Positions 613-59,106 of a stretch of 64,000 nucleotides of DNA are shown here, piece after piece. This DNA is from an uncultured Clostridia bacterium (GTDB lineage Bacteria > Bacillota > Clostridia > Christensenellales > Borkfalkiaceae): contig CALVTT010000001.1 in assembly GCA_944363045.1 (NCBI GenBank), forward strand, positions 1 to 64,000, written 5' to 3'. Both the position numbers and the translations under genes were made by a program. How positions within the stretch are numbered: the first letter of the stretch is position 1; every line of letters begins with the position of its first letter. The notes below the pieces were generated by a model that made no database searches, had not been told where the DNA came from, and saw only the letters and a list, made by a program, of their open reading frames with translations.

Positions 613-631
613 TCGCACTTTGAACGCAAGA

Positions 632-662
632 GAGGCGCTCTCCTTCGGGAGGGCGCTTTTTG
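632..662 (+). terminator. Intrinsic terminator of gap
   Basis: A 9-bp GC-rich stem (635-643 with 648-656) closed by a TTCG tetraloop is followed by five T residues. About 33 bases here are repeated almost exactly in the terminator at 2201-2232. Confidence 0.9.
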
Positions 663-697
663 CGTAGTTTTCATTTGTAAAATTTTTGAAAGGGGGC

Positions 698-16242: not shown

Positions 16243-16251
16243 AACAGTACG

Positions 16252-16287
16252 AAAGAGGGGCGTTCTCCGTCGGGAGAGCGCCTCTTT
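16252..16287 (+). terminator. Intrinsic terminator of the repeat surface protein
   Basis: A GAGGGGCG...CGCCTC stem with a GTC loop and TTTT tail, of the same type as the terminators at 632 and 2201. Confidence 0.85.
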
Positions 16288-16362
16288 TGCGTTTTTCGCG
16301 GGCGATAAGTGCATTTTGTGAAGGAGGTGGAGGAATTTTCATCAAAGCATGACACAACCCCG

Positions 16363-36772: not shown

Positions 36773-37687
36773 ATGGCAGGATTTACGGCAAAGGACGTCA
36801 TGACGCTCCGTGAACAGACGGGCGCGGGCATGATGGACTGCAAGAAGGCCCTCACCGATGCAGAGGGCGATATGAGCAAGGCGGCAGATCTTCTGCGCGA
36901 GCGCGGCATCGCAAAGGCTGCCAAGCGCGCTTCCAAGATCGCGGCAGAGGGCGTCGTCTACGCCTATGTCGAGGGCAAGACGGGCGTGCTCGTCGAAGTC
37001 AACTGCGAGTCCGACTTCGTTGCCAAGGGCGACAGGTTCCGCGCCCTCGTCGAGACGGTCGCAAAGCAGATCGCGGCGACAAAGCCGCAGGACGTCGAAA
37101 CGCTGCTCGCTTCCGCGCTCCCTTCGGGCGAGACGGTCGAAGCGTTCGTCACCGATCAGACCGCCGTCATCGGCGAAAAGATCTCCGTCCGCCGCTTCAC
37201 GGTGTATGAGAGCGCCGGCCACATCGAGACGTATATCCACATGGGCGGCACGATGGGCGTCATGCTCAACTTCGCCTGCGAAGAGAACGACGTCACGAAG
37301 GAGCTTGCGCACAACGTCGCGCTCCACGTCGCCTTCTCCAAGCCTCAGTACATGACGAAGGACGAAGTCTCCGAGGAAACGCTTGCCAAGGAGAAGGAGA
37401 TCCTCATGAAGGAAGTCATGAACGAGGGCAAGCCCGCGAACATCGCCGAAAAGATCGTGCTCGGCAAGATCAAGAAGTTCTACGAGGAGAACTGCCTGCT
37501 CGACCAGAAGTTCATCAAGGACGACAAGGTGACCATCGCCCAGCTCATCGCCGAGGAATCGAAGAAGGCCGGCTGCCCCGTGGAGCTCAAGGCGTTCTGC
37601 TTCTATGTCATGGGTCAGGGCCTCGAGAAGAAGAGCGAGGATCTGCAGGAGGAAGTCGCCAAGCAGGTCGAGGCGATGAAGAAATAA
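36773..37687 (+). CDS. tsf: Translation elongation factor Ts
   Basis: 304 residues, nucleotide exchange factor for EF-Tu. The N-terminal UBA-like domain (TLREQTGAGMMDCKKAL) and the core CESDFVAKGDRFR / VALHVAFSKPQYMT motifs are clear. Its usual neighbour pyrH is 1.6 kb away because a repeat block and a kinase-like gene lie between. Confidence 0.98.
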   Translation: MAGFTAKDVMTLREQTGAGMMDCKKALTDAEGDMSKAADLLRERGIAKAAKRASKIAAEGVVYAYVEGKTGVLVEVNCESDFVAKGDRFRALVETVAKQIAATKPQDVETLLASALPSGETVEAFVTDQTAVIGEKISVRRFTVYESAGHIETYIHMGGTMGVMLNFACEENDVTKELAHNVALHVAFSKPQYMTKDEVSEETLAKEKEILMKEVMNEGKPANIAEKIVLGKIKKFYEENCLLDQKFIKDDKVTIAQLIAEESKKAGCPVELKAFCFYVMGQGLEKKSEDLQEEVAKQVEAMKK

Positions 37688-37693
37688 GTTCAC

Positions 37694-37860
37694 ACTTTTT
37701 TGCGCAAGCGCAAAAAAGTCGTGAGGGGTGGAGTGTTGCGATTTTAACTTATTTTATCGCCCGCGAATTCATCTGTCATTCTAAGAACACTAAGCCTCAA
37801 GTATGAGGCAAATTGAGTGAGCCAGCGCAAGGGAACCTTGCTTGGCTCATTTTATTTTTA
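37694..37860 (+). repeat. Structured intergenic repeat, copy A (after tsf)
   Basis: Begins with a perfect 12-bp palindrome (37694-37705 with 37708-37719), then an 81-bp core (37738-37818) about 84% identical to copy B at 57678-57758, including ATCGCCCGCGAA and CATCTGTCATTCTAAGAACA. Within it GCCTCA-AGTA-TGAGGC forms a hairpin that in copy B is GCCTCT-GGTA-AGAGGC, a compensatory change. A further stem (TGAGCCA...GCAAGG / CCTTGC...TGGCTCA) is followed by TTTTATTTTT and can terminate tsf. Non-coding. Confidence 0.75.
37818..37860 (+). terminator. Terminator of rpsB-tsf carried by the repeat
   Basis: TGAGCCA (37818-37824) and GCAAGG (37827-37832) pair with CCTTGC (37836-37841) and TGGCTCA (37843-37849); the tail is TTTTATTTTT. 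Confidence 0.75.
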
Positions 37861-38340
37861 GAAGCAACAAAGGGCAACCCTCCTCGCGGGATTTTATTTT
37901 AGAAATTCACGAATTTCTTTCGCTGCGCGAAACAAATTCCGTGAGAAAATTTCGCGAAAATCTTTTTGCTGCGCAAAAATCTTTCCGCGAGTTTAAGTGC
38001 CCTGCGGGTACAAATTGAGTCCCGCAGCGGAGGGCAACCCTCCTTGCGGCATTATTGGGGAACCAACTCCCTCAGTCTCGCTTTGCTCGACAGCGTCTCG
38101 CGCGATAGAGACCGCGCTTCGGTCAGGAAACGGCGCGCACAATGCGCCGTTTCCAAGTTCGCAAGTGGTCAAAGCCACACCGTGGCTTTGCCAAGAAAGC
38201 ACTTGCTCACCCTCAAAGAGGGAGCCACGGGGGTTAGCGTTGTTTCCTTGCCTCCCTCTGAGAGGGAGGTGCCCCGAAGGGGCGGAAGGAGTTATCTGAT
38301 CGCAGGCTTCCGCTTGCGGAGCGAACGATTCGATCTTAAC
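37861..38340. repeat. Mosaic of intergenic inverted repeats between tsf and the kinase-like gene
   Basis: Contains two degenerate copies of GGGCAACCCTCCT-GCGG (near 37870 and 38030); long hairpins around 37905-37955 and 37950-37990; a 29-bp segment (38066-38094) that is the reverse complement, 27 of 29 bases, of 57849-57877; a perfect 11-bp stem GGAAACGGCGC (38126-38136 with 38144-38154); a nested stem CAAAGCCAC/GTGGCTTTG; and GAGGGAGG and GCCCC/GGGGC hairpins to 38285. A long open frame crosses it but reads as repeat translation, not a protein. Confidence 0.7.
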
Positions 38341-38407
38341 AGGCGGTTTCGGTCGCCTGTTTTTTCGGCTCTCTATTTTCAATATAATATAATTTTCAAA
38401 GCGGGTA

Positions 38408-56122: not shown

Positions 56123-57640
56123 ATGATCTCAAACGTGACTTGTTTTGCGTTGGCGGGGCTCGAAGGGGTGCCCGTCACGGTGGAGACGGACGTCAACAGG
56201 GGCGTGCCCGCCTTTGAAATGGTGGGCCTTCCCGACGCCGCCGTCAAGGAGTCCAAGGAGCGCGTGCGCTCCGCCCTCAAAAACAGCGGCTTTCAATTTC
56301 CCGTCGTCAAAGTCACCGTCAACCTCGCTCCCGCCGACCTTAAAAAGGAGGGCGCCGTCTTCGACCTTGCCGTTGCCATCGGCCTTTTGAAAGCGAGCGA
56401 GCAGCTCGTGGGGGCAAACCTTGCAGGCATCGTCTTTTTGGGTGAGCTCTCCCTCGACGGCAGCCTCCGTCCCGTCAGGGGGCTCCTGCCCATCCTCATT
56501 TCCGCCAAGTCGCGCGGCTTTACCACCTTCGTCATCCCTGCCGCCAATGCGGGCGAGGCGCGCTTTTTAGACGGCGTCACCGTCTATCCCTGTTCCACGC
56601 TCATGCAGGCCGTCAAGTTCCTTGTCGGCGCCGAACGGCCCGAGCCCGTCAAACCCGTCCGCTATGTGCCCGGGGCGAGAGGGGAGAGCTCTTCCGACTT
56701 GAAATTCGTCAAAGGCCAGCCTCTGGCGCGGCGGGCGGTGGAGATCGCCGTCGCAGGCGGGCACAACTTGCTCCTCGTCGGCCCGCCCGGCACGGGCAAG
56801 ACGATGATCGCCCGCTGTATCCCCACCATCATGCCCGACCTTTCCTTCGACGAGGCGCTCCAGATCACCAAGATCCACTCCGTCGCAGGCATTTTGGGCG
56901 AGGAGGGCATCGTCACCGAGCGGCCCTTCCGCACGCCCCACCATACGGCGACCACCGTCTCCATGTGCGGCGGCGGCAACCGCGTGGTGCATCCCGGCGA
57001 AATTTCCCTCGCGCACGGCGGCGTGCTCTTTTTGGACGAGCTGCCCGAATACAAGCGCTCGACTTTGGAGGCGCTGCGCCAGCCCCTCGAGGACGGCAGG
57101 ATCACCATCTCCCGCTCGGGCGGCAGCTGCACCTATCCCGCGCGCTTCATGCTCTGCGCGAGCATGAACCCCTGCCCCTGCGGTAACTACGGGTCGGAAA
57201 AACTCACCTGTACCTGTACGCCCGCCGAGATCAGAAATTACCGCCGCAAGGTGTCGGGGCCCCTTTTGGACCGCATCGACCTTCAGGTGGAGGTGGATGC
57301 CATCGGCTACGACGACCTCACGGCAGATACGGCGCAGGAAAGCTCCGCCTCCGTCCGCGAGCGCGTCAACGGGGCAAGGCGCATCCAGCGCAACCGCTTC
57401 GAAGAGAAGCCCATCCACACCAATGCCGAGATGGGGGAGCGGGAACTGAGGGAGTTCTGCGCGCTCTCGCCCGAGTGCGACCGCATCTTGCGCGACGCCT
57501 TCGAGCGCATGCAGCTCTCGGCGCGGGCACGGGCGCGCATCATCAAAGTGGCGCGCACCATCGCCGATCTCGACCAGAGCGAGGATATCATGCCCCGCCA
57601 TATGTTTGAGGCGGTGTCGTATCGTATTTCATTTCGTTGA
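56123..57640 (+). CDS. comM: Mg-chelatase-like AAA ATPase ComM (YifB)
   Basis: 505 residues, hexameric helicase that aids branch migration during natural transformation. N-terminal Lon-C-like domain (GLPDAAVKESKERVRSALKNSGF), Walker A LLVGPPGTGKTM, RPFRTPHHTAT, VLFLDELPEYKR and a CxC-type insertion (CASMNPCPCGNYG, CTCTPAEIRNY), then SGPLLDRIDLQVEV. The neighbouring dprA supports a transformation or recombination role. Its stop codon TGA (57638-57640) lies inside the palindrome that begins repeat copy B. Confidence 0.95.
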   Translation: MISNVTCFALAGLEGVPVTVETDVNRGVPAFEMVGLPDAAVKESKERVRSALKNSGFQFPVVKVTVNLAPADLKKEGAVFDLAVAIGLLKASEQLVGANLAGIVFLGELSLDGSLRPVRGLLPILISAKSRGFTTFVIPAANAGEARFLDGVTVYPCSTLMQAVKFLVGAERPEPVKPVRYVPGARGESSSDLKFVKGQPLARRAVEIAVAGGHNLLLVGPPGTGKTMIARCIPTIMPDLSFDEALQITKIHSVAGILGEEGIVTERPFRTPHHTATTVSMCGGGNRVVHPGEISLAHGGVLFLDELPEYKRSTLEALRQPLEDGRITISRSGGSCTYPARFMLCASMNPCPCGNYGSEKLTCTCTPAEIRNYRRKVSGPLLDRIDLQVEVDAIGYDDLTADTAQESSASVRERVNGARRIQRNRFEEKPIHTNAEMGERELREFCALSPECDRILRDAFERMQLSARARARIIKVARTIADLDQSEDIMPRHMFEAVSYRISFR

Positions 57641-57830
57641 TTTTTAGCAAGCTAAAAATCAACGAGGGGCGGGCTACGCGATTTTAAGCATCGTTATCGC
57701 CCGCGAACGCATCTGTCATTCTAAGAACAATAAGCCTCTGGTAAGAGGCAAATTGGGTCTCGCAGCGCAAAAGCGTGGTTTTGCTTGCGGAAATAATTTA
57801 AGAAGCAGCGAGGGAAACCGCGTCCCTCTT
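57637..57830 (+). repeat. Structured intergenic repeat, copy B (after comM)
   Basis: Starts with a palindrome (arm TTGATTTTTAGC 57637-57648, complement 57651-57662) that includes the comM stop, then the 81-bp core (57678-57758) matching copy A at 37738-37818, then a GCAAAA...TTTTGC helix in the place of copy A's GCAAGG...CCTTGC. The leading palindrome has a different sequence in the two copies but the same form. Non-coding. Confidence 0.75.
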
Positions 57831-58026
57831 GGCTCCTTCTCTGAGGGAGCTGTCGAGCGCAGCGAGACTGAGGGAGTCGCATTATTATAAAATGCAAGAG
57901 TTCGGCAAAGGCAGTTCTCTTCATTGCACGAGAAAGTGCCGCGTGCAGCGTGACGGAAGGTGTAAAACTTTCCGCAAAAGCTGCGTCGGCGGGTTTTGCG
58001 GAAAAATATAAAACAAGGAGGCGGAT
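57831..58026. repeat. Second repeat module and dprA upstream region
   Basis: Contains CTCCTTCTCTGAGGGAG (57834-57850), overlapping a 29-bp segment (57849-57877) present in inverse orientation at 38066-38094. From about 57890 to 58026 the sequence holds no recognised feature apart from the AAGGAGG ribosome binding site of dprA at 58015-58021; I see no clear promoter. Confidence 0.55.
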
Positions 58027-59106
58027 ATGACGCAGGATGAGTTGGGGATCGTATGGCTCTGCGGGTGCACGGAGCTCGATAAGCGCGAGTGCGTCGCCCT
58101 CCTGCGCGCGGCGAAAAGTCCCGCCCGTCTTTTGGAAGATTACGAAAAAATTGCGCCCGCGGTGATACGATCGCCTAAGGCGCGGTTATATAAAGAGAGA
58201 GGCATTCGCTTTGCAGCCGCCGAAGGGCTCGTAAAAGAGCTGGAAAAAGAGGACGTCTTTCCCGTTACCGTGCTCGACGGCGACTACCCCGAATCGCTCA
58301 AAAACATCGCCTCGCCGCCCCTTCTTCTGTACGGGAAGGGGGAGCGCGCCCTCTTGCGGGAGCGAAAGTTCTGCATCGTCGGCTCGCGCGTGACCCCGCC
58401 CTGGGCGGAGAGCCTCGGCCGCACCATCGCAGAGGCGCTCTCCTCCCGCTTTTGCATCGTCACGGGGCTGGCGGAAGGGGGAGACAGCGCCGCGATACAG
58501 GGCGCGCTGCCCTCGGGCAATCTCATCTCCGTGCTGCCCTGCGGGCTCAGGGAATGCTATCCCGCCTCGCACGCGGGGTTGAAGGAGAAGATCGCGCGAA
58601 GCGGCCTGCTCCTCAGCGAATATCCGCTTTCCGAGGGCGTTAAAAAGTACACCTTCCACGAGCGCAACCGCCTGCTCGCGGGGCTTTCGGAGGGCGTGCT
58701 CGTGCTTTCGGCGGGGGAAAAGAGCGGCGCGCTCATCACCGCGAACTGCGCGGCGGAGTTCGGCCGCGACGTCTTCGCCCTGCCCTACCGCCCCAACGAG
58801 GCGCGCGGCGCGGGCTGCAACGACCTTTTGAAGAAGGGCGCCTCCCTCGTGACGGAGGCGGAGGACATCCTCTCCTTCTACGGCTTTGAAAAGGAGCCGC
58901 CTAAAAAAGAGGAGAAGGGGCCCGTGCTTTCCGCCGAGGAGCGCCGCGTGTATGAAGTTCTGCGCGAGGGGGGAGAATTGCATACGTCCGTACTTGCGGA
59001 GAGGGCGGGGCTGCGCATCTTTGAAGTCTCGGCCGTGCTCTCCTCGCTGGAGATAAAGGGGCTCGCCGTCAAGGCGGGCGGCAACCGCTATTCCCTTGCG
59101 CGCTGA
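58027..59106 (+). CDS. dprA: DNA processing protein DprA
   Basis: 359 residues, loads RecA on incoming single-stranded DNA in transformation. Rossmann-like core: YPESLKNIASPPLLLYGKG, CIVGSRVTPPWAES, IVTGLAEGGDSAAIQGAL, SEYPLSEGVKKYTFHERNRLLAGLSEGVLVLSAGEKSGALITANCAAEFGRDVFALP, GCNDLLKKGA. A C-terminal winged-helix segment follows. The usual GSR-x-x-(S/T)-x-YG motif reads GSRVTPPWA, a local variation. Confidence 0.95.
   Translation: MTQDELGIVWLCGCTELDKRECVALLRAAKSPARLLEDYEKIAPAVIRSPKARLYKERGIRFAAAEGLVKELEKEDVFPVTVLDGDYPESLKNIASPPLLLYGKGERALLRERKFCIVGSRVTPPWAESLGRTIAEALSSRFCIVTGLAEGGDSAAIQGALPSGNLISVLPCGLRECYPASHAGLKEKIARSGLLLSEYPLSEGVKKYTFHERNRLLAGLSEGVLVLSAGEKSGALITANCAAEFGRDVFALPYRPNEARGAGCNDLLKKGASLVTEAEDILSFYGFEKEPPKKEEKGPVLSAEERRVYEVLREGGELHTSVLAERAGLRIFEVSAVLSSLEIKGLAVKAGGNRYSLAR

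What the first reader, a model, noticed from the sequence alone, without database searches (positions are those of the whole stretch)
37694..37860. Structured repeat family with compensatory base changes, found after tsf and after comM
Two copies (37694-37860 and 57637-57830) share an 81-bp core at about 84% identity by my alignment (13 differences). Differences fall so as to preserve helices: GCCTCA/TGAGGC becomes GCCTCT/AGAGGC, and GCAAGG/CCTTGC becomes GCAAAA/TTTTGC. The leading palindrome has different bases but the same form. Both copies lie immediately downstream of a coding gene, in the same orientation; copy A supplies a terminator. This pattern suggests selection on a folded RNA or cruciform, so an undescribed structured repeat or 3'-end element.
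Basis: seen in the sequence. Interest (0 to 1): 0.75.

Follow-up and report, generated by a model that had tools for sequence, protein, structure and literature searches.

The report
Gene-end repeats that swap hairpins
An uncultured Clostridia bacterium carries dozens of copies of a short non-coding repeat, also found in its relatives and often parked right behind a gene's stop codon, in which predicted hairpins change both arms together while the stretches between them change less, likely because copies trade hairpins with one another.

Summary
The two copies belong to a dispersed modular repeat of about 185 bp: hairpin H1, a linker, hairpins H3 and H4, an AT-rich tail. This genome has 34 near-full copies. 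The family occurs in 34 of 37 sampled genus members and 0 of 24 genomes from other families; a second model also finds it in two sister genera. No match reached Rfam's gathering score, and one copy searched in plasmids and phages found nothing.

Pairing is strongly supported: covariation score 0.564 against 0.195 shuffled, 124 copies. Two things look unusual. (1) H1 starts 0-9 nt after a stop codon in 64 of 107 testable cases. (2) At orthologous sites the linkers keep some orthology, while H1, H3 and H4 are on average no more alike than random copies (28 pairs). In six pairs with matching linkers, H3 changed at 14 base pairs on both sides and at none on one side.

Best reading: a BOX-like, probably parasitic repeat whose hairpins are replaced in place, likely by copying. 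Neither enzyme family searched tracks it. No transcription data were available. The "terminator" claim is not supported by the scan.

The parts
37689..37725 (+). Copy A, hairpin H1 (TTCACAC...GTCGTGAG), starts 1 nt after the tsf stop codon (37685-37687)
   Evidence: H1 parsing method
37726..37793 (+). Copy A, linker (GGGGTGGAG...GCGATTTTAAC...ATCGCCCGCG...TGTC...ACACTAA)
37794..37809 (+). Copy A, hairpin H3 GCCTCA AGTA TGAGGC
37819..37848 (+). Copy A, hairpin H4 GAGCC-AGC-GCAAGG-GAA-CCTTGC-TT-GGCTC
37849..37861 (+). Copy A, AT-rich 3' tail (ATTTTATTTTTAG)
37723..37852 (+). Copy A, match to covariance model R1 (122.8 bits)
37988..38054 (+). Truncated copy: H3 (TGCCC..GGGTA type) plus H4 (GGAGGG..CCCTCC type) only
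   Evidence: 37.1 bits, E 2.4e-7
38316..38384 (+). Weak match, doubtful fragment
   Evidence: E 0.06
57633..57666 (+). Copy B, hairpin H1; its left arm is made of the last codons and stop (57638-57640) of comM and a following TTTTTAGC, its right arm is the reverse complement of that arm
57667..57733 (+). Copy B, linker
57734..57749 (+). Copy B, hairpin H3 GCCTCT GGTA AGAGGC
57760..57790 (+). Copy B, hairpin H4 TCGC-AGC-GCAAAA-GCGTGG-TTTTGC-TT-GCGG
57664..57795 (+). Copy B, match to covariance model R1 (128.4 bits)
36773..37687 (+). tsf, gene upstream of copy A
   Evidence: TIGR00116
56123..57640 (+). comM (YifB-family Mg chelatase-like ATPase), gene upstream of copy B
   Evidence: TIGR00368; gene start as called
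58027..59106 (+). dprA, gene downstream of copy B
   Evidence: TIGR00732

Best explanation
The two copies belong to a modular, BOX-like non-coding repeat family, found in this genus and two sister genera, that sits mostly behind same-strand genes and whose predicted hairpins, H3 and H4 above all, are likely replaced in place, both arms at once, by copying from other copies. Shown: 34 near-full copies in this genome; strong covariation; start of H1 0-9 nt after the stop codon in 64 of 107 testable cases; presence/absence at orthologous gene ends; linkers that keep some orthology while hairpins on average do not; hairpin alleles shared within a genome more often than linker stretches of equal length, apart from the conserved last 16 nt of the linker. 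Inferred: that the element is largely parasitic and tolerated at 3' ends, that the hairpins provoke the exchange (hairpin-triggered breaks or fork stalling repaired from another copy, or template switching between arms), and that it is transcribed as part of the upstream mRNA. How the element reaches a new stop codon is not known; neither of the two enzyme families searched tracks it.
For: Copies: 34 hits above 100 bits in the own genome; 34 of 37 genus genomes and 0 of 24 genomes from other families; R2 in 23 of 396 genomes of the order, 22 of the 23 in one family. Structure: A4, 124 copies, 96.5% of cells paired vs 76.0% shuffled, covariation score 0.564 vs 0.195, 0 of 500 shuffles as high on either; A3 and A2 likewise on these two measures. 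Placement: of 183 elements with a called upstream gene 146 same strand, 37 opposite (p 1.6e-16); tandem settings 89 vs 32 (p 2e-7); 42 convergent, 4 divergent; none overlaps a called gene by more than 60 nt; H1 0-9 nt after the stop in 64 of 107. A TRA target motif away from stop codons is not in excess (35 of 71 vs 35.9 shuffled). Turnover of sites: R1 within 700 nt after tsf in 4 of 30 loci and directly after comM in 2 of 30; after a third gene in 2 of 30. Hairpin exchange: 28 orthologous pairs in five genomes, percentile rank of linker halves 0.64 and 0.68 (KS p 0.024, 0.012), H1 0.54, H3 0.49, H4 0.53 (p 0.72, 0.78, 0.22). Six pairs with matching linkers: H3 arms differ at 28 of 60 positions, 14 base pairs changed on both sides, 0 on one side, the five counted pairs WC in both partners; linker differs at 60 of 461 over seven pairs. 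Same-genome copies share an identical H3 in 132 of 1483 pairs and H4 in 125 of 1483, but a 32-nt linker stretch in 7-13 of 1483.
Against: The linker signal is modest (8 and 9 of 28 pairs in the top decile); five parts were tested without correction, some loci enter several pairs, and one nearly identical pair is included. H1 is not always exchanged: 5 of 28 pairs are in the top decile for H1, and in three of the seven pairs with matching linkers H1 is 98-100% identical. Those pairs were chosen for similar linkers, which lowers linker divergence. Neutral divergence is already high (4-fold sites 77% identical in tsf, 78% in comM, between G000 and G001). Many H3 alleles are singletons in the sample (8 of 13 in G000, 12 of 17 in G001), and in the six swapped pairs 6 of the 12 alleles have no second copy in the same genome among those sampled, so a donor is not always visible. 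Allele sharing is strongest in one genome (G005, 8 alleles in 25 copies), and H3 identity within genomes (8.9%) is only just above that between G000 and G001 (8.0%). The conserved last 16 nt of the linker are shared almost as often as H3 (116 of 1483). In one pair only the outer stem of H4 changed (L261/L283), which fits arm-wise template switching better than whole-hairpin conversion. Less favourable covariation measures: further pair types in A2 are below the shuffled mean (16 vs 18.5, 491 of 500 as high) and in A3 97 of 500 shuffles reach them; pairs with a two-sided change in A4 are 12 vs 10.9 (56 of 500). Y1_Tnp occurs in 8 of 37 and RVT_1 in 6 of 37 genus genomes, neither in G000 or G001; other enzyme families were not searched.
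Confidence: 0.6

Rival explanations
1. A functional 3'-UTR RNA element under selection: H1 right behind the stop codon, then H3 and H4, shape mRNA 3' ends (stability, termination or ribosome clearance), and compensatory mutation keeps the helices. (The rivals overlap with the best reading and with one another; their odds need not add up to one.)
For: Orientation bias and stop-codon docking, covariation, conserved irregularities such as the AGC/TC internal loop of H4 and the terminal T-G of H1 (135 of 135 parsed H1 start TTC, where the parse allowed TTC or CTC), slightly more G-T than A-C pairs in H3 (4 vs 1 by allele).
Against: Ten upstream genes of the own genome show no theme (RNase E/G, FtsY-like GTPase, serine dehydratase, YchF, PTS IIC, DeoR regulator and others); at the three genes tested the site is occupied in only 2 to 4 of 30 genus loci; in six orthologous pairs H3 arms differ more than the linker and with no one-sided change.
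Confidence: 0.25
2. A non-autonomous transposable element (MITE or IS200/IS605-like, with subterminal hairpins) moved in trans by a transposase, each site holding an independent insertion.
For: Presence/absence at orthologous gene ends, tandem units, genus-wide spread, different copies at the same gene end.
Against: No convincing terminal inverted repeats: the ends score 5.44 vs 4.56 shuffled (sd 1.08), an excess of about one base. Y1_Tnp absent from G000 and G001 and present in only 8 of 37 genomes. Linkers at shared sites keep some orthology, which independent insertion would not give. Only one loose hint of a target duplication (GATAA around the G001 comM island, by eye).
Confidence: 0.2
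3. Palindromes with no role, kept perfect by template switching between arms during replication; covariation is then a mutational by-product.
For: Two-sided changes without intermediates; copy B, where the right arm of H1 is complementary to the coding end of comM; one pair in which only the outer stem of H4 changed; the mechanism is described for RNA hairpins in PMC8794818 (abstract and start of introduction read).
Against: Conserved irregular loops survive in H4 and H1; identical hairpin alleles recur at several sites and in more than one genome, which needs copying between sites or common descent.
Confidence: 0.3

Closest known systems
BOX elements of Streptococcus pneumoniae (PMC3049150; abstract and two results sections read)
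   Same: Modular, with variable module number, predicted stem-loops, high copy number, nearly restricted to close relatives, over-represented between convergent genes, mobilising enzyme uncertain, about half of the insertions shared by all strains.
   Different: BOX is described as having TIRs and target duplications; neither is clear here. The paper describes BOX-gene distances as a gradually decaying distribution, not a start right at the stop codon. The sections read describe change in module number, not hairpin replacement inside a kept linker.
REP/BIME palindromes (PMC3733652; search listing with the start of its abstract)
   Same: Extragenic palindromes in high copy number (mosaic arrays: recalled).
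   Different: No GTAG or CGTC tag 5' of H1 (2 and 0 of 135); units are about 185 bp with three hairpins; no Y1 transposase found in this genome.
Template-switch evolution of RNA hairpins (PMC8794818; abstract and start of introduction read)
   Same: Simultaneous multi-base compensatory change of both arms.
   Different: That work concerns RNA genes; here it would run in dozens of dispersed repeat copies per genome and with alleles shared between sites.
bcr-type repeats of the Bacillus cereus group (search listing only)
   Same: Dispersed repeats with predicted RNA structure (recalled).
   Different: Not compared in sequence or in detail.

Membership tests
BOX element | Modular composition with variable number or type of modules | tested here: met
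   5' module of two types joined to the same H3-H4, truncated copies and tandem units, 42 distinct H1/H3/H4 combinations in the 52 fully parsed of 67 copies
BOX element | boxA/boxB/boxC sequence | not tested
   no BOX sequence was compared
BOX element | Terminal inverted repeats | tested here: not met
   133 copies, local score 5.44 vs 4.56 shuffled (sd 1.08), a small excess of about one base, no TIR
BOX element | Target-site duplication | tested here: inconclusive
   one candidate (GATAA) at G001 comM against the empty G035 site, none clear in G000, by eye
REP/BIME with RAYT | GTAG or CGTC tag next to the palindrome | tested here: not met
   2 and 0 of 135 in the six bases before H1
REP/BIME with RAYT | Y1 transposase in the genome | tested here: not met
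   PF01797 not found in the own genome, which is 79% complete; 8 of 37 in the genus
IS200/IS605-derived element | Subterminal hairpins at both ends, fixed 5' target motif | tested here: not met
   hairpins at both ends are present, but the 6 bases before H1 carry no fixed motif, only few C, and no TRA excess away from stop codons
Integron attC site | R boxes RYYYAAC and GTTRRRY at the two ends | tested here: not met
   0 of 135 (consensus recalled)
Any Rfam family | Match at the gathering score | tested here: not met
   0 in the window; seven element-bearing loci at E <= 1 gave 3 hits, all below gathering score
Intrinsic terminator | GC-rich stem followed by a U-tract | tested here: inconclusive
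   scan finds none at H4 on the plus strand, but it needs an unbroken stem
Structured RNA under selection | Compensatory change with G-U intermediates | tested here: inconclusive
   compensation strong, intermediates nearly absent in H3; H1 has 50 G-U in 1786 folded pairs over 99 alleles

The most novel reading that the evidence does not exclude
A new class of repeat in which fixed linkers serve as a scaffold and the hairpins are exchangeable cassettes: each hairpin provokes its own replacement from another copy, so pairing is kept while sequence turns over faster than in the unpaired linker. Such repeats would imitate RNA covariation, and they dock at stop codons by an unknown insertion route.
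Probability: 0.4. Interest if true: 0.8.

Novelty: new variant of a known kind. Interest (0 to 1): 0.62.

Why it matters
Two-sided base changes are often taken as evidence of a functional RNA. A repeat family whose hairpins are replaced as units would give the same signal by a DNA process, and here the two can be told apart because the linkers between the hairpins keep their own history. The family also offers, in genomes already sequenced, up to dozens of sites per species at which hairpin turnover can be dated against synonymous change, and a placement at stop codons that calls for an insertion mechanism.

Tried and rejected
Known repeat or transposon end: Rfam, plasmids and phages by distant blastn with one copy as query, genome contigs and viral contigs by pattern gave nothing. 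The two patterns cover few H4 alleles, and near relatives may be left out of the collections, so searches are weak evidence.

Mobilising enzyme: PF01797 and RVT_1 do not track the repeat; no other family was searched.

Stop-codon docking as a TRA target motif: no excess (that set was made with the first gene caller and still holds some copies that do follow a stop, such as L082 and L070). Docking as a mere effect of short gaps: not fully excluded, but at one site the empty relatives G035, G027 and G036 keep about 60-120 nt between genes by eye, and the element still starts 3 nt after the stop.

Reverse-strand promoter in the linker: one hit in copy A (ATGACA-17-TAAAAT, 37779-37751), none at that place in copy B, by eye not kept in other species; dropped. 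attC-like site: rejected. A peptide reading frame through the linker was considered by eye and dropped because the frame is not kept.

A first gene caller put the gene before copy A on the wrong strand; it was replaced (the upstream counts stayed 146 and 37, the tandem counts went from 85/30 to 89/32). A first H3 parse was off by one base and was redone. A first H1 parse did not enforce its constraint and was redone. Rows dropped: 45 of 192 elements had no parsable H3; 43 of 192 were not eligible for H1 (core not starting GAG, or under 60 nt upstream) and 14 of the 149 eligible had no parsable H1; 21 of 143 copies had no parsable parts.

Literature: searches listed no paper describing this family; only the open-licence library was searched, and apart from PMC3049150 and PMC8794818 only listings were seen.

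Full report
WHAT WAS CHECKED. The two copies are present as described; the tool pairs 37738-37830 with 57678-57770, 93 nt at 82%. Copy A follows tsf and copy B follows comM (YifB family), with dprA next. Both fold better than 200 dinucleotide shuffles (z -5.7 and -4.4).

A FAMILY, NOT A PAIR. Copy A as DNA query gives 48 matches in the own genome at E <= 10, itself and inverted hairpin matches included; the genome is a 1.77 Mb assembly in 99 contigs, 79% complete. 26 copies were aligned; 25 trimmed copies gave covariance model R1. R1 finds 47 places at E <= 1, 34 of them above 100 bits. In 61 genomes R1 hits 34, all in the same genus (34 of 37 genus members, own genome included); none of 24 genomes from 24 other families has a hit. 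Counts in the 34 run from 2 to 53, with at most 55 candidates scored per genome. A genus-wide model, R2, hits 23 of 396 genomes of the order: 13 of the 14 listed genus members, 8 of 11 listed in one sister genus, 1 of 1 in another, 0 of 8 listed in four further genera of the family, and one genome outside the family with a single weak hit that lacks an H3 by eye. In one search at most 8 candidates per genome were scored and 353 genomes without a match were not listed. The nearest named records of tsf are uncultured Clostridia assemblies at 75-77% identity; the record of the window itself may be left out there.

ANATOMY. A unit is H1 (34-46 nt in 115 of 135 parsed cases, TTC...GAG, very variable arms, longer ones with further hairpins in the loop), a linker of about 65 nt, H3 (6-bp stem with an A(A/G)GTA-type loop in many copies, inside CARTAAG...CAAATTG), H4 (outer stem, AGC/TC-type internal loop, inner stem, short loop) and an AT-rich tail; some units follow each other head to tail. 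In the sister genera, and in some copies of this genus, H3-H4 is joined to a quite different 5' module. Further palindromes of another repeat type follow in several islands.

STRUCTURE IS REAL. On 124 copies from six genomes, 12 of 19 pairs show two-sided changes, 96.5% of cells are paired (76.0% in shuffles) and the covariation score is 0.564 (0.195 in shuffles, 0 of 500 as high); sliding the partner by 1-3 columns gives at most 0.160. The 39-copy set from other genomes (which shares a few copies with the first) and the 25-copy set from this genome agree on percentage paired and score. Other measures are weaker: pairs with a two-sided change in A4, 12 vs 10.9 shuffled, 56 of 500 as high; further pair types in A3, 97 of 500, and in A2 below the shuffled mean, 16 vs 18.5, 491 of 500. 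Few pair types with many two-sided changes is what exchange of a limited set of hairpin alleles would give. Alignments A3 and A4 were fitted to the model, which favours it, and relatedness is not modelled by the shuffles. H3 was parsed in 147 of 192 elements: 56 alleles, 46 of them fully Watson-Crick; over alleles 301 WC, 4 G-T, 1 A-C, 7 other pairs.

WHERE IT SITS. 192 distinct elements (196 hits), 143 of them from five genomes, were placed against called genes. None overlaps a called gene by more than 60 nt. The upstream gene is on the same strand in 146 and opposite in 37. Between two genes of one direction, 89 follow it and 32 oppose it; 42 are convergent and 4 divergent. The p values in that call treat elements as independent, which tandem units and shared sites are not. 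H1 was parsed in 135 of 149 eligible elements. Among 107 with a same-strand upstream gene, 64 start 0-9 nt after the stop codon. Of the other 43, five start before the called stop, eight at 43-64 nt, and ten at 162-187 nt, about one unit further on. Away from stop codons no TRA motif is enriched before H1 (35 of 71, shuffled 35.9). Ten of the upstream genes in the own genome were scanned: eight matched a family (RNase E/G, SRP54-type GTPase, serine dehydratase, YchF, PLP enzyme, DeoR regulator, nucleotidyl transferase, PTS IIC), two did not. No common theme is seen.

SITES COME AND GO. R1 hits lie within 700 nt after tsf in 4 of 30 loci and directly after comM in 2 of 30 (30 loci were held of 33 and 41 matches; two of the tsf loci end within 360 nt of the gene). 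After a third gene the element is found in 2 of 30. The four relatives without it that were read at comM have a short gap there.

HAIRPINS ARE SWAPPED IN PLACE. At shared gene ends the whole elements are hardly more alike than random copies. For the own genome and its nearest relative, 12 pairs have flanks at a median of 90%, element identities 62-99% with a median near 72, and random pairs average 71.5 (sd 6.0). Neutral change is large (4-fold sites 77% identical in tsf, 78% in comM), so parts were scored apart in 28 pairs over five genomes. Percentile ranks against random pairs of the same two genomes: linker halves 0.64 and 0.68 (KS p 0.024 and 0.012; 8 and 9 of 28 in the top decile), H1 0.54, H3 0.49, H4 0.53 (p 0.72, 0.78, 0.22; 5, 3 and 2 of 28 in the top decile). 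These p values are uncorrected and some loci enter several pairs. Eight pairs with clearly matching linkers were then read base by base. One is nearly identical throughout. In the other seven the linker differs at 60 of 461 positions; H1 is 98-100% identical in three of them and 62-84% in four; H4 is 59-81% identical in six and 97% in one. In the six of the seven with a simple H3, the arms differ at 28 of 60 positions; 14 base pairs changed on both sides and none on one side, and the five counted pairs are Watson-Crick in both partners each time. The seventh, with a doubled H3, was left out of that count. In one pair only the outer stem of H4 changed. Choosing pairs by linker similarity lowers the linker figure; it does not affect the 14-to-0 count. 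Same-genome copies share an identical H3 in 132 of 1483 pairs and H4 in 125 of 1483, but an identical 16-nt linker stretch in 13-55 and a 32-nt one in 7-13 of 1483; only the conserved last 16 nt of the linker reach 116. One genome, G005, with 8 H3 alleles in 25 copies, adds much of this sharing, and H3 sharing between G000 and G001 (8.0%) is close to that within genomes (8.9%).

READING. The simplest account is a BOX-like parasitic repeat tolerated at gene ends, whose hairpins are replaced as units, by copying from another copy or by template switching between strands. The second process is described for RNA hairpins in PMC8794818 (abstract and start of introduction read). Copy B shows that the arms can follow a coding sequence: its H1 uses the comM end as left arm. 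That hairpin-cleaving nucleases start the exchange is inference from general knowledge. A role of the transcript is neither shown nor excluded. Y1_Tnp and RVT_1, the two enzyme families searched, do not track the repeat.

AGAINST KNOWN KINDS. BOX elements (PMC3049150, abstract and two sections read) are the closest in design; TIRs were not found here (a small excess of about one base), so it is not filed as BOX. REP tags, attC boxes and Rfam matches fail. No paper describing this family was listed in seven searches of the open library; most subscription papers are not held there.

Noticed in passing
L088 (own genome) and L241 (G001), element and about 240 nt after the stop codon: This block is 99% identical over the element between two genomes whose 4-fold sites are only 77-78% identical in tsf and comM; the 28 other genus loci read with R1 have no match at this site. 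It looks like a recent transfer or conversion limited to the intergenic block.
   Followed up: partly
window 38066-38094 and 57849-57877: A second repeat type (ACTCCCTCAGTC...GACAGC, inverted, 93% complementary) lies in both islands and by eye recurs behind other copies; it too seems to keep its form with variable hairpins.
   Followed up: no
L307-L319 (sister genera), L093, L056, L057: A different 5' module (long stem, loop with AGGGC.CAC...TTTATA in the sister genera, ending ATTCAC) is joined to the same H3-H4 half.
   Followed up: partly
L013, L088, L240, L241, L248: Some copies carry two H3 hairpins in a row, a possible intermediate or by-product of the exchange.
   Followed up: no
window 57633-57666: The right arm of the copy B hairpin H1 is the reverse complement of the end of comM, stop codon included; the orthologue in G001 has an ordinary H1 after its stop.
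   Followed up: partly
window 625-665, 2194-2234, 16250-16290: Similar terminator-like hairpins at three places (95% and 76% to the first); by eye not related to the repeat.
   Followed up: no
L320 (G241, another family of the order): Single weak R2 hit with an H4-like hairpin but no H3 by eye; chance or a distant relative.
   Followed up: no
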